NCBI GenBank assembly: GCA_035606695.1 | Contig: DATNEW010000014.1 | Location: forward strand, 1 to 64,000 | DNA length: 64,000 nucleotides | DNA from: Gemmatimonadaceae bacterium | GTDB lineage: Bacteria > Gemmatimonadota > Gemmatimonadetes > Gemmatimonadales > Gemmatimonadaceae | Direction: 5' to 3' | Shown here: one piece after another, positions 48,752-58,399 of the stretch | How the letters are laid out: each line of letters begins with the position of its first letter | Position numbering within the stretch: the first letter of the stretch is position 1 | Translations under genes and position numbers: made by a program | Notes under the pieces: model-generated | What the model was told of the DNA's origin: nothing | The model's database searches: none | Seen by the model: the letters and a program-made list of their open reading frames with translations, nothing else

Positions 48752-48916
48752 CTGCTCCACGAGGGCGGTCGGCGTAGATGAGGCGTATACCTACACGGCG
48801 CAGTTTCGGAGCCGGCCAAGAAGATCGTGGATCACCTCGGAAAGGGTGTTCCATCTTGGGCGGCATACATATCTTGTTATTGCACCGCCTTATCGAGTTC
48901 GCTACCGCCCCGGCCA

Positions 48917-50131
48917 ATGCCGCGACACGACTTCACACAGCCGTTCGAGACGTTTCGTGTCAACAGTCGCGACCGCGAACCGTTGCGCGAGTTCATGGAA
49001 GCAGCGCTCCGAAAGAGTGGCTGTTCGATGATCCACACCTCGCCTGCAAATGAGGCACCGTTCAGGTTGTCGTTCCTGACGCCGTGGGGAGAGCGGATTG
49101 GCATCGTTGCGTATGCCTTCCTGGCCAACTCACGTGCGACGAAGAACCGGCCCCTCGACGAGCACCGCTTTCAAGTGAAGTACGGTTCAAAGGACGGCCA
49201 GCTTCACACCTTTTGGCAAGACCCATTTGGACTTTACGTCACGCTTTTTCTCGGCATCAATCCTGAGATGGAGTTTTTCGTCGGTGCAGATCCAGTGCTC
49301 AACAGCCCGACGCGTTTTTTCATCTCGAAAGAGTTCAAGCAGTCTGAGGTCGATAGTATCACGCGTGATGGCTGGCATGCTTGGGAGCGTGACCAGCGTC
49401 GAGCCGTGAGTGCCGATCCGGTCGAGATTCTCGTCGGAGGAACGGCCGAACACTTCCTACGCTACGTCTTGTTTGAGCGCGAAGCCCGCGGCGAGGAGCA
49501 AGGGCATAGACAGCTAGTCGCCGAGCAGATTGCCAAAGCGTCGCTGGGCGCCGGGTTGGTCACCGAGCCCAGCGTTATTTCAACGGCCGCGCCTCTCACA
49601 ATCTCCAAGAAGCGGCTTCACGCGCTTGAGCGTGAGTTTGATCTCGGTTCGACCGACATCTTGGAGTTGATCGCTCGTGCACCGCGGCTCAAGATGGCCG
49701 TGCGCGGATGGGTGGCCGAACGTCACTTGCAGCAGCGCCTCGAAGCGCTTGACGACGTGCGATCTGTTGAAAGCATTGAGGCGGACGGAAAGCCTGACTT
49801 CCGTGTCGAGATGCGGCGTGGGAACCGTCCGGTGCTTGTTGAGTGCAAGAACGTGCTCAGAGAGAAGGATCGCCTTGGCCATCCACGACTCGATTTCATG
49901 CGAACGCGTGCTGCGATGGGCGATCCTTGCAGCCGGTATTACAGTCCGCGTGAGTTCGACGTGCTCGCGGCATGCTTGCATGCCAACACCGGCAATTGGG
50001 ACTTTGCAGCTCGCAAGACCAGCGAGATGGCAGCGCACCCGACCTGTGCCGGAAAGCTCTTACATCGGGTAGTCATTGATGACGTCTGGGAGCACGACCT
50101 GAGTGCCGTGCTCATGGCAGCATCGATGTGA
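48917..50131 (+). CDS. Restriction-endonuclease-like protein (PD-(D/E)xK)
   Basis: 404 residues; ATG 48917 is the most likely start. The first 180 residues may bind DNA. The catalytic core is near the C-terminus: EADGKPD294FRVEMRRGNRPVLVE309CK311NVLREKDRLGHPRLDFMRTRAAMGDPCSRYYSPREFDVLAACL, i.e. PD...ExK with a central strand. Its convergent neighbour is a cytosine methylase followed by a divergent vsr, so it is probably the cutting half of a type II restriction-modification system. The recognition site is unknown. Confidence 0.8.
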   Translation: MPRHDFTQPFETFRVNSRDREPLREFMEAALRKSGCSMIHTSPANEAPFRLSFLTPWGERIGIVAYAFLANSRATKNRPLDEHRFQVKYGSKDGQLHTFWQDPFGLYVTLFLGINPEMEFFVGADPVLNSPTRFFISKEFKQSEVDSITRDGWHAWERDQRRAVSADPVEILVGGTAEHFLRYVLFEREARGEEQGHRQLVAEQIAKASLGAGLVTEPSVISTAAPLTISKKRLHALEREFDLGSTDILELIARAPRLKMAVRGWVAERHLQQRLEALDDVRSVESIEADGKPDFRVEMRRGNRPVLVECKNVLREKDRLGHPRLDFMRTRAAMGDPCSRYYSPREFDVLAACLHANTGNWDFAARKTSEMAAHPTCAGKLLHRVVIDDVWEHDLSAVLMAASM

Positions 50132-50149: not shown

Positions 50150-51478
50150 CTATCGGCGCGGTGCGATACTGCCTGCGCTAACGCGACGAAGCGCCCCGTA
50201 GCCCAAACCCGTGCCAGGGTGAGCCTCGTAATCCCCAACGAGCTTCAGGTATTTCCGGGGAACTTTGGCGATAGGCTCGACCGGAGGCGTGTCGGCTCGA
50301 CGTTTCGGCAGTAATGACGCGGATACTCCCTTGAACGGTTCTCCGAGAAGTTGGTGCCGAATCTCAAGCGCCAAGGCTCCCGCGAGCGCTGAGGGAACGG
50401 CGTTGCCCAACTGCCGCTGTGCCGAACGAAACGAGCCAACTATCTCGTAGTTTTCCGGGAACGTTTGCAACCGCATCATCTCTTTGACGGAGAGACGACG
50501 GTTCTTCCAATGGAACGGACCGACGGCCGGTCCTGGCTGCGCCGCAATGGTCCAAGACGGGAGCGGCTTGGCAAGCTTAAGGAGAAAGCTCCAATAGCGA
50601 CGTCGCCAACCAAAAAGCGGGACGCCACCTCCACGGCTCGTGTGAAACAGGTAGTTGTTTCCCTCGGGAATCGTTGGAAGCAGATCAGCCCACTTTCCCG
50701 TCACCGCCAGGGCCGGATCATTGTCTTCTTCGAGATCTCCAATCGCGTCCCAAGCGGACAAGTGTGGTTGACGAGGGCTTGTATCGCTGGCGCTCGGAAA
50801 TAGTTCAAGACTGCTTTGCTTATCGTCAGGTGCACCCACGTCCGAGGACGGTGGGGCGTGCGTCGGGGCTGGAAATCGAAACAGTTCACCGGTTCGCGAG
50901 CCGACAATAAAGACGCGGTGACGATCCTGCGGCACGCCGTACTCTACCGCTCTAAGAAGCGCTACCTCGAACGAATAGTTGGCGCGGGTGTCGCGATTGA
51001 TAGCCTCAATCGATCGCTTGAGGAACGTGAGACCCTCATCCTTCTGACTGAAGGCCAGGCCAGGAACGTTTTCTAGAAGGAACGCGCGCGGCTGGGCATC
51101 GCGCAGGACGCGCAGGTATGCACTGAGGGTCGCCGATCTTGGATCGGCCAAGCGCTTGGCATCGCCGTGCGCCCAATAACCCGATTTACTGAAAGGTTGA
51201 CAGGGTGGTCCGCCAATCAAGACATCTGCCTCGCCTGCTTTGAGCCGAGCGGCACGAAGTATTGCCTTCGATGACGCGGCTTCGGACTGAACATCTTTGT
51301 CTATAACTTCCCAGGACGGCCGATTCTTGCGGAGAGTGGCGATCGCGTCGGGTTCGAGTTCAACGGCGACTCGGGTTTCGAACCCCGCCGCCTCGAAGCC
51401 CAGGTCAAGCCCCCCAGCCCCAGTGTATAAGCTGATAGCCTTAAGCGGTTTCATCGACGTTTTCGTGGGCGCTGCCAT
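50150..51478 (-). CDS. dcm: DNA (cytosine-5) methyltransferase
   Basis: 442 residues from ATG 51478 (ATG 51454 also possible). All key motifs: I (SLYTGAGGLDLGFEAAGF), IV with catalytic C93 (GGPPCQPFSKSG), VI (ENVPG), VIII (VPQDRHRVFIVGS), IX (RLSVKEMMRLQTFPENYEI) and X (QLGNAVPSALA). The target-recognition region lies between VIII and IX (about 190-330). It ends 18 bases from the convergent endonuclease gene and is divergent from vsr, so methylase and nuclease are separately controlled. Confidence 0.93.
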   Translation of the reverse strand: MAAPTKTSMKPLKAISLYTGAGGLDLGFEAAGFETRVAVELEPDAIATLRKNRPSWEVIDKDVQSEAASSKAILRAARLKAGEADVLIGGPPCQPFSKSGYWAHGDAKRLADPRSATLSAYLRVLRDAQPRAFLLENVPGLAFSQKDEGLTFLKRSIEAINRDTRANYSFEVALLRAVEYGVPQDRHRVFIVGSRTGELFRFPAPTHAPPSSDVGAPDDKQSSLELFPSASDTSPRQPHLSAWDAIGDLEEDNDPALAVTGKWADLLPTIPEGNNYLFHTSRGGGVPLFGWRRRYWSFLLKLAKPLPSWTIAAQPGPAVGPFHWKNRRLSVKEMMRLQTFPENYEIVGSFRSAQRQLGNAVPSALAGALALEIRHQLLGEPFKGVSASLLPKRRADTPPVEPIAKVPRKYLKLVGDYEAHPGTGLGYGALRRVSAGSIAPRR

Positions 51479-51534
51479 ATTCCGGAATGTAGGCCGAGGA
51501 AACGCCTAGCGCATCGCTGGCATCTAGAACCTCC

Positions 51535-52101
51535 GTGACTCGAATGTATCGGAAATCCGTCGAATCGGACCAATCAAACCGTCGCAACCCGAAGCCAAAG
51601 AACGCGGTATCCTCCCCGCGAAGCGAACGGACTATCGCACTCGGTAGTGGCGTGCGAGTCGCGTACCCGCGTCCAGTCAGCGATGCCGCCTCGGCGGCGA
51701 TGCGCGGGAACCGGAAGCGAGATACGAAGCCAGAACTCGCGGTTCGTCGGCTATTGCACGCCCGCGGATACCGGTATCGTGTGAATGCGCCTATTGTGCT
51801 GCTAACCGTCCGGGTGCGGCCGGACATCGTATTCCGTGCTGCCAGGGTCGCGATCTTCATCGATGGGTGCTTCTGGCATGGTTGTCCCAAACACGGGACG
51901 CAGCCGAAATCGAACTCGCACTACTGGAGCTCGAAAATCGAGCGGAACATCGCGCGGGACCGGATATACGATCGGGCTTTGCGATCCGCGGGTTGGGCTG
52001 TCGTCCGAATTTGGGAGCACGACGATCCGGAGCGGGCGGCGGACCGAATTTCGGCAAGGCTTGCTAAGGCGCGATCATTGATCTCGAAGACCGCTGTATG
52101 A
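51535..52101 (+). CDS. vsr: Very-short-patch-repair endonuclease Vsr
   Basis: 188 residues; the first 45 or so may not be translated, since Vsr usually begins just before the RDTKPELAVRRLLHARGYRYRV block. Catalytic D97 in VRPDIVF and the zinc/active-site region VAIFIDGCFWHGCPKHGTQPKSNSHYWSSKIERNIARDRIYDRALRSAGWAVVRIWEHD are complete. Family knowledge: nicks T:G mismatches left by deaminated 5-methylcytosine, so it protects the site of the neighbouring cytosine methylase. Confidence 0.93.
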   Translation: MTRMYRKSVESDQSNRRNPKPKNAVSSPRSERTIALGSGVRVAYPRPVSDAASAAMRGNRKRDTKPELAVRRLLHARGYRYRVNAPIVLLTVRVRPDIVFRAARVAIFIDGCFWHGCPKHGTQPKSNSHYWSSKIERNIARDRIYDRALRSAGWAVVRIWEHDDPERAADRISARLAKARSLISKTAV

Positions 52102-52269
52102 TCGCGTGACTTTGGCCCATTAGTGCCAAAGTTCGCATACAAGAGCGTTCGCGCGTGCCAGCGCGATTCGCTGAATGGAGGTGATCGAGCCGGTTAGTGC
52201 CAGGGTTCCGAGCCCAGGCCGATCCCACTACGAACCCTTGTCCTCTAAACCTACCGGAGAACGCTACGA

Positions 52270-52295
52270 CGCCATCGTCAAGATAGTCAGGAGTG
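52270..52295 (+). repeat. 26-bp direct repeat, copy 1
   Basis: Identical over 26 bases to 52517-52542; begins CGCCATCGTCAAG. The copies are 247 bases apart and lie in the leader of the reverse transcriptase gene. In this copy part of the repeat pairs with the bases after it to form a hairpin. Confidence 0.9.
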
Positions 52296-52324
52296 ACTAT
52301 CGCCTCGGGTCGACCGGCAACCCT

Positions 52325-52373
52325 ACGTCGGCTCCGCCCTTCGGCGGCATGGCGGCGAAACCGCCAACGACGT
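52325..52373 (+). other. Three-way-junction fold in the leader
   Basis: Outer stem ACGTCG (52325) with CGACGT (52368); inner hairpins CCGCC-CTTC-GGCGG (52334-52347) and TGGCGG-CGAAA-CCGCCA (52350-52366). Seen directly; compact and GC-rich. Confidence 0.65.
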
Positions 52374-52516
52374 GATGATAATTCGTTCTTGGCCGACGCT
52401 CAAGGACAACGTGCTTGACCATGGCCATCGATACGAGCAGCTTTGTCGAGCGGCGAGCGCACCTCCATCGTGGGGTGCCCGGTTGCTGTCCGACCGCCCC
52501 AGCCAGGGTAGCGTGC

Positions 52517-52542
52517 CGCCATCGTCAAGATAGTCAGGAGTG
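52517..52542 (+). repeat. 26-bp direct repeat, copy 2
   Basis: Second exact copy, 60 bases before the start of the reverse transcriptase gene. The downstream half of the hairpin seen at copy 1 is not kept here. Confidence 0.9.
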
Positions 52543-52601
52543 TTTCTTCGACGGGTTGTTTCCGTCAGTCCCCATCAACCTGCGAGCGCTGGGGAACGGC
52601 A

Positions 52602-54008
52602 ATGTCGCAGGTTACCTCAACTCCCACGTTCGATGCCGCCTTCTCCCGCGAGGCGCTCGGTGAGGTGTGGAATCGGCTGAAGGAAGCGAAGACTGATCTC
52701 CTCGACGACCGGATCAAGATTCCGGCCGGATGGGATGGCTTGACCGTTGCGCGATTTGAGCGTCAACTCCCCCAGCACCTCGCAGCGATCGAGCGGCGTG
52801 TTCGATCCGGACGATATCAATTCCGGCCGTTCCTCTTCCACTTCGTTTCCAAGGTGGACGGTGGAGAACGCAAGATCGCGTATTCGGGAATCCGAGACCG
52901 GATTGTTCAGGCGGCCCTTCACGACGTTCTGGCGCCCGTCATCAACGCTCGCTTAACCGACAGCGCCTTCGCGTATCGTACCGGGGTGAGCACCTACGAC
53001 GCAATTCGTCGGATCTACTCTGCGGCGACTTCCGGCCAGCCCTTTTTCGTCAAATCGGATTTCGTCAAGTTTTTCGATCGACTGGACCACGCGCGTCTCA
53101 AAACTCTTGTGGATGGCCTCGATGTCGATGCTCGCGCACAGCGGCTTGCGTGGCGTTTCGTGCGGGCAGGGGACATTGCCCGCGCTGTCAATCGGGCGTC
53201 GATAACCTTTCCTGCTGGCCGGAGGATCGGCGTGCCGCAGGGCGGGGTGATCTCGGGTCTGCTCGCGAATCTCTATCTGTGTGCCTTCGACGAGGCAGTT
53301 CAAGGTGTGTCGGGGACCACACTCGTCCGATACGCGGACGACTTCGTCGTACTCTGTAGAGACGAAAGCACGTGCCAAGTCGCGTTTGACGCCGTGGCGA
53401 CGGCTGCTCGCGAAGTCCTTCTCGAGCTGCATGAAGGCGAGAAGACCGTCCGGTGCGGCCACATCAACGACGGAATCACATTTGTCGGCTTCCGTCTTCG
53501 TGGAACAAAGGTCGCCGTCAAGCCAACGAACGTCGCGAAGTTCAAGCGCCGCATTCAGGCTGTGCTAGCGCTGCACGAAACTCGGCTACGCGACGGTGAG
53601 TATGCGAGTCCACGGGAATGCGTTCGGCAAGCGCTCCGACACGTCAACCTGAAGATCATGGGAGTGGAGGTCGATGGCGGGCGCCGAAGTTGGATTGCCT
53701 GCTTCCGCATCATCAACGACGTAGATCAGGTTCGGCAGCTTGATCGGTGGGTGTGGAGAAAATTGTCGCTAATGACACGCCGCCTGGGTCTGCCGCATCG
53801 AACACGATCGGAAATCTTCGGACTCGGCTACAGAGGGTTACTGCGTGAGTACTGGCGCACTCGACGCCAAATGAGATCGCTAACGCTTCCCTTCCAGGGA
53901 ATGATACGGACATCCGTCGAGCGGACTGGCGTAGTCGTCGCGGGGCCGGGCGCGTATTCGGTCTTGAAGTCCGTGGCCGACGCGCCCGCTGACGAGATGG
54001 TCACCTAA
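52602..54008 (+). CDS. Free-standing reverse transcriptase (group-II-like)
   Basis: 468 residues from ATG 52602, with GGGGA upstream. Reverse transcriptase motifs: [54 protein letters not shown], first catalytic Asp in FFVKSD153[25 protein letters not shown] (210-226), Y244-ADD-247 ([11 protein letters not shown]), TFVGFRL. The C-terminal 170 residues resemble a thumb/X region; no HNH or maturase DNA-binding motif. No group II intron domain V follows, since the convergent gene ends 24 bases downstream. DGR-type SQ motif and retron NAxxH/VTG motifs are absent. Within a defence island this suggests an antiviral reverse transcriptase. Confidence 0.88.
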
Positions 54009-54032: not shown

Positions 54033-56201
54033 CTACTTGTAGACCGTCGTCAACGCAATCCGGTGCGCCCCCGGAAGGTCCTCGAATGCACGACCGGCAA
54101 CAATCAGCTGTGTTCGTACGGGCAGCAATGCCGACAAGAGCTGAATGAACGGTACGATGAGATAGTTCTCCTCGTCGGTTAGTTCGCGATCATCCGCCAG
54201 AGTAGGAGGGAAGTCAATAATCGCCAGTCCCGGATAATTGCAACCCGCTCGCCCCGAGAGCGACAAGAGGGCGTAGTGGTATGCGTTCAGAAAGAAGCAC
54301 GCGAGTGTTGCTCCAAGCTTCGTTCGCCAATTCGAGTTAGTTACGGTAATCCAAAAATCGCGCTTACGTAGACGGATCGACACAGGCCCTTCAGGCCAAC
54401 GCTCCAGTCCATCCTGGTTGAGGGCATTGAAGTAGGAATTGAATCCCTCTTCGAGCATCGTGGCAGCCCCTTCGAAGTTTACATCTCTTGTCTGTGACTC
54501 GACCTGAGCTTCCAAGGCCGTCGCTTCAACTTCGATACGATCGATCTCACCATTTAGCGTGTCGCGCTGCGCCAGCGCCTTTGCGATGGCATCGAGCGTA
54601 CGTAGCCGCTCGTCGATTCCACCAGCCTCTTGATCGAGCAGGCTGAGATCAGGTGGAAGTACGGCCGCTGCTGCGACCTGAGTCGGCCGGATGAGGCCTT
54701 CGAGAGATCCGATCGTCTCCTCTATCGACGAGACTCTGTCGGCTATCGCCCTTCTACTGGCCTCGTGCCGATCAATCACTTCGCTGAGTTCCTTACGTTC
54801 GACACTCAACTGATCAGCCTCGAAAGCGAGACGTCGTGATCCTAGGACTGGATCGGCAGCGGTGTGGTCGTGCGGCTGTAGACAGAGGTAGCAGCTATGG
54901 GCTGACCCTCGTGACTGAGTGACGGCCTGATCACAGACTGGACAGTGCGTCACTTTCAACTCGGCCAGCACCACTCCTGCCTCTTGCGCCCGCTGTAATC
55001 GTTCATGCTCGCGCGAGATGGACTCGCGATACTCTTCCAATTCCTTGACGCGAGTGTTGGTCCGTGCGAGTTCATCTTGGAGGCTCTGCCGCCGGGCGCG
55101 CGCATCCGCGAGCGCTTGACCATGTTCTTCGAGGAGACTTTGGACTCGAAGACGCTGCTCGCTCTGCGCGTTACTCGCTACGTCCGCCAGTTGCCGAAGA
55201 GTCGCCAATCGCCGTTCGCTGACCGTCTGACGCTCTTGCAGAAGCCTCGTCCTGGCCGAGTTCACGGAATCCGCGGTGACGGCTACGGAGAACTCGGCAA
55301 ATCGCCCGATTTCATTCGTAACTTGGTGAAGCAGTTCCATGTACGATTCCTTGCGGGCGCGCAGCATCTGAACGCTCTTGCGCTTCGCCACGAGGTCGCC
55401 GTACTCAACCGAGAACAGCGCTTCGGCGAGTCCAAGGAACTGCATTAAGGCCGCATGCTGCTCACCTTCGAACTGCTTGTCAGCAAGATCGCTCCAGAAG
55501 CGTTCCTCGCGGTATGCATGCCGAAACAGCGATCGCCACGATAGTACTGGCCATGCCCGTGGCGCGAATGGGTCGCCCCTTGGGTAGTGAACGACTGGAA
55601 TGCCGAGGAGCTGTAGGAGGTGGGCGCCGAATTGGTCCGTGGTCATCGCTTCGCCGTCGACAAACACCTTTCCCTTCATGCCCACCTCTTTCCAACGCCG
55701 TTCCACAATCAGCACCTGATCGGCCGGCCCAACATCTGTGCCCGGCGGCGCGTCGGCGTCGTCAGGCGGCGCCTCGAGTGAACTGGCTTGGGGTGCGGTC
55801 CCGTCAGGGGCCGATGCACCGGTCCTGGTGGCTTCCGGCGTAGGTGGCACGCCGCAGATTCTGATAGTGACGCGTGCGCTCCGGTACTTCTCGGCGAGTT
55901 CGGAACTCAAGGTGATTTCGGGAGGATCGCCATCACCGAGGACGAAATCGATGAAGCGAATCCACTTGGACTTGCCAGCATTTGGAGGGCCCGCGAGCAA
56001 ATTGACGCCGACTTGAAAGGCTAGTTCCTCTGGGTCGCCCTGTTCGGGAACTCGCTGAACACTCTCGATGATGAGGGTGCGCGAAGGCTTCGGTGTGGCT
56101 GATGTTGGCTTGTGCCCAGCCGATGGCTCGGTGGCGATGGGAACGTGAACATCGCCGAGGTCTAGCGGCATCTGCCGAGGCGTATCGTCGCGAGGGGTCA
56201 T
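54033..56201 (-). CDS. Zinc-hook SMC-like ATPase (Lamassu LmuB / ABC-3C ATPase)
   Basis: 722 residues from ATG 56201, overlapping the upstream stop (ATGA). Walker A GPPNAGKSKW (71-80), then a Pro/Ala-rich insert (118-160). Coiled coils from about 270 lead to a Rad50-like zinc hook C420PVC423...C437YLC440, with returning coils to about 600. The C-terminal ATPase half has the Walker B-like LAIIDFPPTL (Asp 663, without the usual following Glu). Family knowledge: in Lamassu systems this protein senses DNA ends and holds the nuclease inactive until infection. Last gene of the three-gene cassette. Confidence 0.85.
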   Translation of the reverse strand: MTPRDDTPRQMPLDLGDVHVPIATEPSAGHKPTSATPKPSRTLIIESVQRVPEQGDPEELAFQVGVNLLAGPPNAGKSKWIRFIDFVLGDGDPPEITLSSELAEKYRSARVTIRICGVPPTPEATRTGASAPDGTAPQASSLEAPPDDADAPPGTDVGPADQVLIVERRWKEVGMKGKVFVDGEAMTTDQFGAHLLQLLGIPVVHYPRGDPFAPRAWPVLSWRSLFRHAYREERFWSDLADKQFEGEQHAALMQFLGLAEALFSVEYGDLVAKRKSVQMLRARKESYMELLHQVTNEIGRFAEFSVAVTADSVNSARTRLLQERQTVSERRLATLRQLADVASNAQSEQRLRVQSLLEEHGQALADARARRQSLQDELARTNTRVKELEEYRESISREHERLQRAQEAGVVLAELKVTHCPVCDQAVTQSRGSAHSCYLCLQPHDHTAADPVLGSRRLAFEADQLSVERKELSEVIDRHEASRRAIADRVSSIEETIGSLEGLIRPTQVAAAAVLPPDLSLLDQEAGGIDERLRTLDAIAKALAQRDTLNGEIDRIEVEATALEAQVESQTRDVNFEGAATMLEEGFNSYFNALNQDGLERWPEGPVSIRLRKRDFWITVTNSNWRTKLGATLACFFLNAYHYALLSLSGRAGCNYPGLAIIDFPPTLADDRELTDEENYLIVPFIQLLSALLPVRTQLIVAGRAFEDLPGAHRIALTTVYK

Positions 56202-56749
56202 CGGATCGTCTCACCCAGTAGACGCTGGGCCACTTCGCGATCGAACTGCTCGTAGATGAAACGCTTGATCGCATCGCCGGATTTGTTGCCGAACACCCTC
56301 TTGATATGAGTCATCTGCTCAACGACGCCCGAATGGGCCGGACTCTTTCGCAGTGCGTCGGCACGATCAACGCCCGCCTCTGTTAGCGTGAACTGGTAGC
56401 TCCCGTTGGGCTGCGGTTTGACATCAAGAAGCTCAGCTCCCTCGAGAAGGGCGAGCACATGGTAGTACCGCTTATCCCACGGACCGTAGTGATGGCGCAC
56501 CATTGGGGCTTCGATGCCGACCGTAATCGGCGGAACGGGTTGGCCTCGGGCTCGGCACGCCTCCGCAAAGAACGCCGGATAGCGCGCGAAAAAATCGAGC
56601 TTCGCAAGTTTCGTCAGGCCATCGATTCGGTTCTTGATGCCGCAGACTCGATGTAGTAGCAGGATGCGAGCAGCGTGGAATTCGATAAGATCGTCCGCGA
56701 GAAGCGCGCGGCTGGCTGGCAATTGCCGAAGGTTACGGATGGATCTCAC
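56198..56749 (-). CDS. ABC-three-component middle component (LmuC-like)
   Basis: 183 residues; GTG start at 56749 overlaps the nuclease stop (GTGA), and its stop overlaps the ATPase start. NRIDGLTKLAKLDFFARYPAFFAEACRARG ... VRHHYGPWDKRYYHVLALLEGAELLDVKPQPNGSYQFTLTEAGVDRADAL is a winged-helix-type region typical of middle-component family 2 proteins. Family knowledge: bridges the SMC ATPase and the effector. The order nuclease, middle component, ATPase with coupled starts is the usual one. Confidence 0.8.
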   Translation of the reverse strand: MRSIRNLRQLPASRALLADDLIEFHAARILLLHRVCGIKNRIDGLTKLAKLDFFARYPAFFAEACRARGQPVPPITVGIEAPMVRHHYGPWDKRYYHVLALLEGAELLDVKPQPNGSYQFTLTEAGVDRADALRKSPAHSGVVEQMTHIKRVFGNKSGDAIKRFIYEQFDREVAQRLLGETIR

Positions 56750-58074
56750 GCAGCCGCTCCCGGCCCACCGGCCTCCGCTGGATGCCCGGAGGAGGGGCGA
56801 TCATTGCTCGTCAATCGCGTGAACTGATGTCGGCATCGAGCCGTGATGTCGTACATCATACCCAACAGAATCGACATTTGTGGCTGTACCGGCAGCCCAT
56901 CACGAAGTTCTCGCAGTGCTTGAATGCACCGGTCATGGAAGGCCGCTGACGTGTCATCGAAGCGGTTCGCATGAAGCGATGCAAGCAGCTCGTGGAGGCG
57001 AGCTTGTACCTCGGCCTCGACGAGTTCCCGTTCATCGAGGGTGAGGAACTTCGAGTCAAGCATCGCCTTCCGGTACGCACGTCGAAGTTCCCACGCGCTT
57101 TCGATCTGAGCATCCGGCAGGGCAGCCGCTTCCATTTTCTCGCGGAGACGTTCAGCACCCGCCGCTTGGGACGGATGCTCGGCTTTTCGGATTTCGGCTC
57201 GCATGAAATCGAGCAGAGCGGCGCGCGCCAACTTCTTGCGCAGCGGGTCGGGGTCCCATGGTGCGTCGGCGGCCTCCTTCGCCTGTGCCAGCAGCTTGAG
57301 GTAAAGGTCGTCGCGTTGGTCGATCATTAAGAACCCGCCTTCATTCTCAACGAACTTGTCGAGCGCCCGATAGTTCGAATTCACGACCGCGGTTTGTGAT
57401 TCCCGCACGTCCCAAACCACGCGCCGTACCCATGAGCGAACATCGTTACCCTTGCTGGACAAGAATCGTCGACCGCCCCTTTCAGCGGATGTTGCGACGG
57501 TCGTGACGACATCCTCGATTGCCGAGTGCCCGTCTACACGGTGGTCATGGCGTAGGTGGTATGTGAGAACAACGAGGTCGGGATGCAGTGGCGTGGATGT
57601 GACGACGCGAAAGGTGCACGGCTCGGCGCACCTCTCGTGGGCTAGCGACTTTTCAAGCAAGGATTCCGGGACCAGCTCATGCGCCGCGGCGGTGGCGATA
57701 GCCTCCGCGTCGGCCGAAGGCTGTGCGCTTTCGCCTTCGTCCCTGCGACTGTCGTCACCATTTCCCGTATCGCCATGACGTTCGCGGCGACAGACGAGAG
57801 CCACCGTCCAGAGTTGCTCCAACTGCTCGTTCTTGACCTGAACGAATTCGACGCTGTCGCTGCCGCTTTGGTGCCAGATGAGGGTGATGTCGTCTTGGGC
57901 TTCGCACCAAACGAACGCCAGGCGGTCATCGGCGAGCATTTCGAGGTAGAACGCGACAGCGACGTGGTCTTGATAGGTAAAGCCACGCCGCGCTGTCGGG
58001 CCACCTTGCTCGCGCGGCCTGAGAACGTGGATTGATGGATGGTTGGACGGCTCAGGGACAACGCCGGAAGTCAT
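56746..58074 (-). CDS. Cap4/DUF4297-type dsDNA nuclease effector (LmuA-like)
   Basis: 442 residues from ATG 58074; a TTG at 58131 would add 19 residues. N-terminal nuclease domain GPTARRGFTYQDHVAVAFYLEMLADDRLAFVWCEAQD61DITLIWHQSGSDSVEFVQ79VK81NEQLEQLW is the Cap4-nuclease/DUF4297 pattern, with D61 and Q79-x-K81 the likely site. The C-terminal half is helical (RKKLARAALLDFMRAEIRKAEHP..., coiled segments to 430). First gene of the cassette and nearest to the tRNA. Family knowledge: degrades DNA on activation, leading to abortive infection. Confidence 0.85.
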   Translation of the reverse strand: MTSGVVPEPSNHPSIHVLRPREQGGPTARRGFTYQDHVAVAFYLEMLADDRLAFVWCEAQDDITLIWHQSGSDSVEFVQVKNEQLEQLWTVALVCRRERHGDTGNGDDSRRDEGESAQPSADAEAIATAAAHELVPESLLEKSLAHERCAEPCTFRVVTSTPLHPDLVVLTYHLRHDHRVDGHSAIEDVVTTVATSAERGGRRFLSSKGNDVRSWVRRVVWDVRESQTAVVNSNYRALDKFVENEGGFLMIDQRDDLYLKLLAQAKEAADAPWDPDPLRKKLARAALLDFMRAEIRKAEHPSQAAGAERLREKMEAAALPDAQIESAWELRRAYRKAMLDSKFLTLDERELVEAEVQARLHELLASLHANRFDDTSAAFHDRCIQALRELRDGLPVQPQMSILLGMMYDITARCRHQFTRLTSNDRPSSGHPAEAGGPGAAA

Positions 58075-58326
58075 TCCTGTCGAGTGAAGGTCCGGGATGG
58101 CAAGCAGGCTCTGCGCCAACGATATCCCCAACTGGCTGGTCGCGCGAGGAGCCGCGAGATCCGAAAATGAGGCTCCTCTAATGCAACCCTTACCGGCGCC
58201 GTCGAGTCGGCGGAGCCGCTGCGTCTCGGAATTGGGGTTTTTTTGGGGTTTTTTTCGCGAACGGCCGCCTCGATGGGCGGCCGTCGCATTTTCCGTCGGT
58301 CAGCTCTACCAACAACTTACCCCTCA

Positions 58327-58399
<73 letters not shown>

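What the first reader, a model, noticed from the sequence alone, without database searches (positions are those of the whole stretch)
52109..54008. Reverse transcriptase with a repeated, highly structured non-coding leader in a defence island
A 468-residue group-II-like reverse transcriptase lacks a linked intron domain V, the DGR SQ motif and retron motifs. About 500 bases upstream contain five separate stems, a three-way junction and a 26-bp exact repeat 247 bases apart. The last stem encloses the ribosome site and ATG, which could link RNA folding or template use to translation. The repeats could be the borders of a template used for templated or repeated cDNA synthesis, as known for some defence reverse transcriptases. 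The family placement and the template role are inference.
Basis: partly seen in the sequence, partly recalled or inferred. Interest (0 to 1): 0.85.

Follow-up and report, generated by a model that had tools for sequence, protein, structure and literature searches.

The report
Reverse transcriptase with template-RNA leader
This bacterial reverse transcriptase belongs to a rare, previously unlabelled family whose upstream RNA, in most relatives, looks like a template that becomes a promoter and a gene without an end only after it is copied head-to-tail into DNA; this copy is an outlying member in which that template is only tentatively recognised.

Summary
The RT (52602-54008), its ~500-base leader and the 26-base repeat are real. 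The RT is not a group II maturase, CRISPR RT, retron, DRT2 or DRT10. It belongs to a monophyletic family (support 100/99, about 20 members, many phyla, often beside restriction, BREX or Lamassu genes) of stand-alone RTs. Relatives carry an RNA in the leader: a covarying pseudoknot just before the RT gene and, upstream, a 60-90-base module in which a -10 box lies before a -35 box, each beside a short repeat, usually GTTC. Joining one repeat copy to the next puts the boxes in order 17 bases apart in six loci. In nine of nine non-Nostoc loci the unit is a multiple of three and the frame behind a Shine-Dalgarno site is stop-free (shuffle chance about 4e-8). This is the DRT2/neo trick, but on the sense strand and in another RT family. 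Inferred: concatemeric cDNA makes an endless repetitive protein as an anti-phage response. The window sits on a divergent basal branch; its leader has a comparable but ambiguous module (52363-52432), and its pseudoknot is not significant alone. The 26-base repeat is unique to this genome and probably not the template border.

The parts
52602..54008 (+). reverse transcriptase, 468 aa, founding query of the family
   Evidence: family HMM gap: full-length members >=430 bits, all other RTs <=217; AF2 pLDDT 84
52102..52601 (+). non-coding leader between the vsr stop and the RT start; by position the family's RNA
   Evidence: RNA shown by covariation in relatives only
52363..52371 (+). candidate 5' copy of the template-border repeat GCCAACGA(C); starts the 5' arm of a hairpin 52363-52393 with the -10 box in its loop
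   Evidence: p=0.010 vs shuffles; by comparison with relatives; tentative
52377..52382 (+). candidate -10 box GATAAT
   Evidence: tentative
52402..52413 (+). candidate Shine-Dalgarno AAGGA (52402-52406) and start codon GTG (52411-52413) followed by CTT GAC, as start..(I/L)D in relatives
   Evidence: composite pattern in 3 of 600 shuffles; tentative
52415..52420 (+). candidate -35 box TTGACC (17 bases from the -10 box after joining at GCCA)
   Evidence: tentative
52424..52432 (+). candidate 3' copy of the border repeat GCCATCGA (unit 61 nt); alternative border ACGA at 52367/52433 (unit 66 nt, endless ORF but -35/-10 spacing 22)
   Evidence: ambiguous
52270..52295 (+). 26-base exact direct repeat, copy 1
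   Evidence: no counterpart in relatives
52517..52542 (+). 26-base exact direct repeat, copy 2
   Evidence: no counterpart in relatives
52553..52595 (+). candidate H-type pseudoknot GGGTTG 52553-58 / CAACCT 52576-81 crossed by TCCCCA 52569-74 / TGGGGA 52590-95, in the position of the family pseudoknot
   Evidence: by position only; the automated test did not pick it and gives no significance in the window
52577..52613 (+). 9-bp stem AACCTGCGA/TCGCAGGTT around the RT ribosome site and ATG (excludes the pseudoknot above)
51535..52101 (+). Vsr-type endonuclease immediately upstream (context)
   Evidence: TIGR00632 139 bits above its cut-off
54033..58131 (-). Lamassu-like operon LmuB/LmuC/LmuA (Cap4 nuclease) immediately downstream (context)

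Best explanation
The RT and the RNA encoded in its leader form a two-part, stand-alone defence element of a new RT family that most likely works like DRT2. Proposed steps: the RT holds the leader RNA through the 3' pseudoknot. It copies a 60-90 base module and returns from the 5' copy of a short repeat to the 3' copy, so that concatemeric cDNA is made. Once double-stranded, each junction brings a -35 box and a -10 box into order at 17 bases, transcription runs in the SENSE direction of the RNA, and ribosomes entering at the Shine-Dalgarno site read a repetitive protein without stop, presumably growth-arresting on phage infection. Shown here: the family, its covarying RNA, and the sequence logic of the module in nine relatives. 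Inferred: that the cDNA, mRNA, protein and defence exist. For the window itself only family membership and leader position are firm; the module at 52363-52432 is a candidate.
For: Family: HMM scores are bimodal, >=430 bits for full-length members vs <=217; one clade, 100/99. RNA: cyanobacterial leaders are strongly conserved, and the pseudoknot has 95.5% of cells paired (slid controls 32-56%) with 7 of 16 pairs changed on both sides (0 of 500 shuffles reach these). T-run hairpins between pseudoknot and RT start are visible in L137, L144, L199 and L146. Module: chosen by promoter + direct repeat only, six loci (L142, L227, L145, L137, L144, L133) give the same kind of junction, p 0.01-0.06 each vs shuffles, and all six have a period divisible by 3 with a stop-free sense frame; the minus strand gives nothing in relatives. 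With anatomically placed units, 9/9 non-Nostoc loci have periods of 63-90 nt, all multiples of 3, and the frame of the SD-start is stop-free while other frames mostly carry several stops; product of shuffle probabilities 3.7e-8; SD-start gaps 4-10. A model of the module built from eight loci scores best, at the right place, in unseen Nostoc leaders (E 7e-4 to 0.13). Context: type I RM, BREX, Hma helicase, Lamassu-like genes, no constant partner. Window: candidate module p=0.010; composite with SD+start in 3/600 shuffles.
Against: The window's branch (with L130, L032) is divergent (branch length 1.36, grouping only 83/38), and its module is ambiguous: the 17-bp promoter junction gives a 61-nt unit that is out of frame, while the in-frame 66-nt unit gives spacing 22. 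The module model does not find the window leader. L130 shows no convincing module; L141 has a frameshifted RT and an IS66 lies 15 bp upstream of the L032 RT, so the basal branch cannot be tested well. In the Nostoc group units are 59-60 nt and the ORF is endless in only some. L143, L131, L199 have weak -35 boxes at the in-frame junction. The imposed-spacing control favours 17 only moderately (22 scores as high on average). No RNA, cDNA or phage data.
Confidence: 0.55

Rival explanations
1. DRT10/telomerase-like: the leader RNA templates very short tandem repeats (A-B-A' within the loop of the SD hairpin), and the repeat cDNA itself, not a protein, is the effector.
For: UG17 (=DRT10) is the best DRT profile (174 bits in the window, 186 in L032). 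Short internal repeats stand in the loop of several relatives (ATAAACATAAACAT in L133, TAAT..TAAT in L199).
Against: No SLATT gene among the neighbours tested. Generic group II RTs also score 129-168 on the UG17 profile. It does not explain the promoter boxes, the SD-start, or the multiple-of-three stop-free units.
Confidence: 0.15
2. The SD-start ORF is an ordinary leader peptide or attenuator controlling the RT, and the RNA is a cis-regulator.
For: The chromosome encodes a 12-32 codon ORF with a good SD in front of the RT in nine relatives; T-run hairpins follow it in several.
Against: A leader peptide needs no stop-free frame upstream of its start back to the repeat, no period divisible by three and no out-of-order promoter boxes beside direct repeats. 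A pseudoknotted RNA upstream of a stand-alone RT is the DRT2 arrangement (PMC12039810).
Confidence: 0.12
3. In the window itself the leader has decayed or has another role: the RT is a domesticated group II-like enzyme (as G2L4) acting in repair, or a template-free RT, and the leader is a structured GC-rich intergenic stretch.
For: Closest folds are the group II GsI-IIC RT (TM 0.69/0.75) and G2L4 (0.64/0.72). The window leader gives no significant match to the module model and no significant pseudoknot; there is an unexplained 26-base duplication.
Against: The RT is intact and in the family clade, and the 500-base leader is retained and folds better than shuffles. The candidate module is in the expected place.
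Confidence: 0.15

Closest known systems
DRT2 (UG2; KpnDRT2, neo) (PMC12039810, PMC11100668)
   Same: Stand-alone RT preceded by a pseudoknotted RNA; short repeats at the template ends; out-of-order -10 and -35 boxes put in order at 17 bp in concatemers; endless ORF.
   Different: RT scores 80 bits against the Drt2 cut-off of 390. Coding and promoter are on the sense strand of the RNA (DRT2: antisense). Units 60-90 nt, not about 120. Borders GTTC-type, not ACA. Most members carry a CxxC..CxC C-terminal motif (not the window).
DRT10 (UG17) (PMC12632851)
   Same: Best UG profile by score; RNA upstream; A-B-A' logic of template resetting.
   Different: No SLATT partner; UG17 score close to that of group II RTs; template unit far longer; coding signal present.
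DRT9 (UG28) (PMC12483538)
   Same: RT plus upstream RNA; sequence and fold similarity (130 bits; TM 0.57).
   Different: No evident poly-U template; different RNA anatomy.
Group II intron RT / G2L4 (PMC12337344 for G2L4)
   Same: Closest fold and TIGR04416 similarity (176 bits).
   Different: Below the 300-bit cut-off; no intron domain V nearby; separate clade.

Membership tests
DRT2 | Drt2 RT equivalog score (NF041746, cut-off 390) | tested here: not met
   80 bits
DRT2 | pseudoknotted ncRNA upstream of a stand-alone RT | tested here: inconclusive
   met in relatives (no constant partner); window pseudoknot not significant
DRT2 | template joined through short end repeats gives -35/-10 at 17 bp and an endless ORF | tested here: inconclusive
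   met in six relatives for the promoter and nine for the ORF; window ambiguous
DRT2 | neo lies antisense to the ncRNA | tested here: not met
   sense strand in relatives; no signal on the minus strand of relatives
DRT2 | phage-triggered concatemeric cDNA and growth arrest | not testable with these tools
   needs experiment
DRT10 (UG17) | adjacent SLATT-domain gene | tested here: not met
   none among neighbours scanned
DRT10 (UG17) | UG17 RT profile | tested here: inconclusive
   174 bits, best UG profile, but group II RTs reach 129-168; no true UG17 sequence was available as yardstick
group II intron maturase | TIGR04416 cut-off 300 | tested here: not met
   176 bits
group II intron maturase | intron RNA (domain V) around the ORF | tested here: not met
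   also none in nine relatives
CRISPR-associated RT | Cas1/Cas2 neighbour or fusion | tested here: not met
   no Cas protein among neighbours scanned
retron RT | retron RT profile (St85 type tested) | tested here: not met
   53 bits vs cut-off 235
DGR RT | SQ motif in RT domain 4 | tested here: not met
   the protein has QGGVISG

The most novel reading that the evidence does not exclude
A second, separate family of reverse transcriptases that create a gene absent from the genome: a never-ending ORF assembled by head-to-tail reverse transcription of the upstream RNA, with promoter and coding on the sense strand, spread over Cyanobacteria, Chloroflexota, Bacillota, Bacteroidota, Poribacteria and others, with the window as a basal GC-rich member.
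Probability: 0.6. Interest if true: 0.88.

Novelty: new variant of a known kind. Interest (0 to 1): 0.76.

Why it matters
In the open-access papers I could search, DRT2 is the only known case in which reverse transcription builds a promoter and a gene that do not exist in the chromosome. A separate RT clade doing the same on the other strand, with unrelated border repeats and shorter units, would show that gene assembly from non-coding RNA arose or diversified more than once, would reveal hidden proteins in 'non-coding' leaders, and gives exact, testable junctions. It also gives a rare set of RTs between group II and UG enzymes.

Tried and rejected
26-base repeat as template border: rejected (absent in relatives, period 247, short ORFs). 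DRT10-like short-repeat template in the SD loop: noted, later judged weaker than the concatemer reading. Pseudoknot in the window alone by shuffle test: not significant. Antisense (DRT2 orientation) junctions: no signal in relatives. Module covariance model against the window leader: no hit. Related loci in viral contigs: none in the family, and none on phage records. Same-phylum relatives: none of 395 genomes. A tree with real DRT2/9/10 sequences was not made because no reference sequences were at hand; profile scores and PDB similarity were used instead. The second alignment of pseudoknots (A8) was unusable because MAFFT did not align the helices.

Full report
What is there. The window holds an intact 468-residue RT at 52602-54008, 500 bases after the vsr stop codon. 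Upstream are a C5-methylase (50150-51478, minus strand) and Vsr (51535-52101); downstream lies a Lamassu-like LmuB/LmuC/LmuA operon on the other strand. The 26-base exact repeat is real, 247 bases apart, and occurs twice in the genome. The leader folds better than shuffles as a whole (z -2.9) but unevenly. A 9-bp stem around the RT ribosome site exists as described.

Family of the RT. Profiles give generic RT 196 bits, UG17 174, DRT9 130, Drt2 90 (PADLOC) or 80 of a 390 cut-off (NCBIfam), group II TIGR04416 176 of 300. Group II-like RTs used as controls score 244-291 on the generic model and 129-168 on UG17, so the window RT stands between the two. The best plasmid hits were two unnamed RTs, in Thioflavicoccus (34%, next to BREX genes) and Nostoc (31%, inside a type I restriction locus). 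A scan of genome contigs with patterns from these three, followed by whole-genome searches, gave about 22 members in Cyanobacteria, Chloroflexota, Bacillota, Bacteroidota, Planctomycetota, Poribacteria and Pseudomonadota. They are rare: at most two hits in each set of 148-380 genomes, and none in 395 of the window's phylum. A family HMM separates full-length members (>=430 bits) from all other RTs (<=217), and a maximum-likelihood tree puts 19 members in one clade with 100/99 support. Most carry C-terminal CxxC and CxC pairs; the window, L130 and L032 lack them and form the basal branch (83/38). AlphaFold2 gives a group II-like fold (pLDDT 84; best PDB match GsI-IIC RT). No partner gene is constant; defence genes are frequent but not universal neighbours.

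The RNA. Leaders of six Nostocaceae/Rivulariaceae members are conserved over about 250 bases. Their 3' end, just before the RT start, forms a pseudoknot GACAGG/CCTGTC crossed by AGTGCCT/AGGCACT. In Oscillatoria (L143) and L138 the letters differ but pair again. Counted on nine leaders, 95.5% of cells pair (slid versions 32-56%), and 7 of 16 pairs have changes on both sides (0 of 500 shuffles reach this). Similar crossing helices stand in the same place in non-cyanobacterial members; by themselves seven of sixteen leaders reach p about 0.02-0.05 and the others, the window included, do not. Sense-strand T-run hairpins follow in several. Rfam has no match.

The module. Upstream of the pseudoknot, the relatives share GTTCC..GCTATAAT..GGAAC, then AAAGGAGAA..ATG..ATTGACATT..GTTCTC (alignment A10). 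TATAAT precedes TTGACA, i.e. they are out of order. Reading about DRT2 (PMC12039810), where cDNA concatemers put such boxes in order, suggested the test. Joining the unit at the GTTC repeat gives TTGACA-N17-TATAAT (L137, L142), TTGACT-N17-TATAAT (L144, L145), TTTACT-N17-TATAAT (L227), TTGACA-N17-TACCAT (L133). When junctions are chosen by promoter score and repeat alone, these six are picked, and each has a period divisible by three and a stop-free sense frame; the minus strand of relatives shows nothing. With units placed by anatomy in nine non-Nostoc loci, the periods are 69, 69, 75, 84, 87, 78, 81, 90 and 63, all divisible by three; the frame opened by the SD-start has no stop while the other sense frames mostly have several; the product of shuffle probabilities is 3.7e-8, before counting the periods. 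Two pairs are related (L142/L227, L137/L144) and the borders of L199, L131 and L143 were placed by eye, so the number over-states the case, but a strong excess remains on the six loci picked without sight of the ORF. The predicted repeats are (MSLDILFLIGYNAIMSTVKGEIS)n, (MIDLLFQLGYNIIITKLDTNTGADL)n, (MPTIDIKFQMWYNITMILNLHLRIKGEF)n and so on. In the chromosome these frames end soon after the 3' repeat. A model built from eight modules scores best at the right place in Nostoc leaders not used to build it (E 7e-4 to 0.13).

Limits. In Nostoc the units are 59-60 bases and the ORF is endless in only two of seven (L132 and L139); short tandem cistrons are possible. L131, L143 and L199 have weak -35 boxes at the in-frame junction. 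The control with imposed spacings favours 17 only in part.

The window. Its leader is not matched by the module model, and the pseudoknot is not significant on its own. A comparable module exists at 52363-52432: repeat GCCA[A/T]CGA, -10 GATAAT in the loop of the hairpin that begins with the repeat, SD AAGGA, GTG CTT GAC, -35 TTGACC. The promoter junction has p=0.010, and a composite with SD and start is seen in 3 of 600 shuffles. But this unit is 61 bases, giving a 22-codon ORF that ends in the next unit. An alternative border (ACGA, 66 bases) gives an endless (VLDHGHRYDVMIIRSWPTLKDN)n with a poor promoter spacing. I therefore treat the window as a family member whose template is not yet identified. 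The 26-base repeat has no counterpart in relatives, and its 247-base concatemer has no long ORF.

Conclusion. Family placement is new: a distinct RT clade between group II and UG enzymes. The function most likely resembles DRT2 (template-built gene), by sequence logic in relatives; it is not a DRT2 member (RT profile and strand fail). Steps from cDNA to defence are inference. I found no published description among the open-access papers searched; subscription papers and preprint servers were largely out of reach.

Noticed in passing
window 52115-52134 and 52189-52208: A second, imperfect 20-base direct repeat (80%, 74 bases apart), GCC..TTAGTGCC..GTTC; both copies are the weak best matches of the module model's 5' edge.
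   Followed up: partly
window 50150-52101: C5-methylase and Vsr-type endonuclease side by side, and a Methylase-associated X1 (MTaX1) protein at 48827-50131: probably a restriction/modification cluster.
   Followed up: no
window 54033-58131: Lamassu-like operon with a Cap4/HamA-like nuclease LmuA, ending near a tRNA gene (58327-58399, minus strand) that may mark the island border.
   Followed up: no
L130 1083-1104 and about 1325-1346: Planctomycete relative: a 22-base, nearly perfect inverted repeat (CCGAGTGGCTATGATGTTGACG / CGTCAACATTATAGCCACTCGG) encloses about 220 bases of the leader and holds -10/-35-like boxes; possibly an antisense (DRT2-like) arrangement.
   Followed up: partly
L135, L138, L141, L147: RT genes broken by frameshifts in several members (mostly cyanobacterial); in L032 an IS66 element sits 15 bp upstream of the RT, where the leader should be. 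Frequent decay suggests cost or changing selection.
   Followed up: no
L132, L033, L134, L136, L135, L226 leaders: In Nostoc the joined unit puts AGGAG 8-9 bases before ATG/GTG and reads a short conserved peptide such as (M/V)L.YS.GRNNKDPP; possibly tandem short cistrons instead of one endless ORF.
   Followed up: partly
L137 and L144: Nearly the same RT leader in a Clostridia MAG and a contig binned as Rickettsiales: recent transfer or a binning error.
   Followed up: no
L157, L164, L180, L184: A separate RT clade (Poribacteria, Acidobacteria) with an insert of about 120 residues between RT motifs.
   Followed up: no
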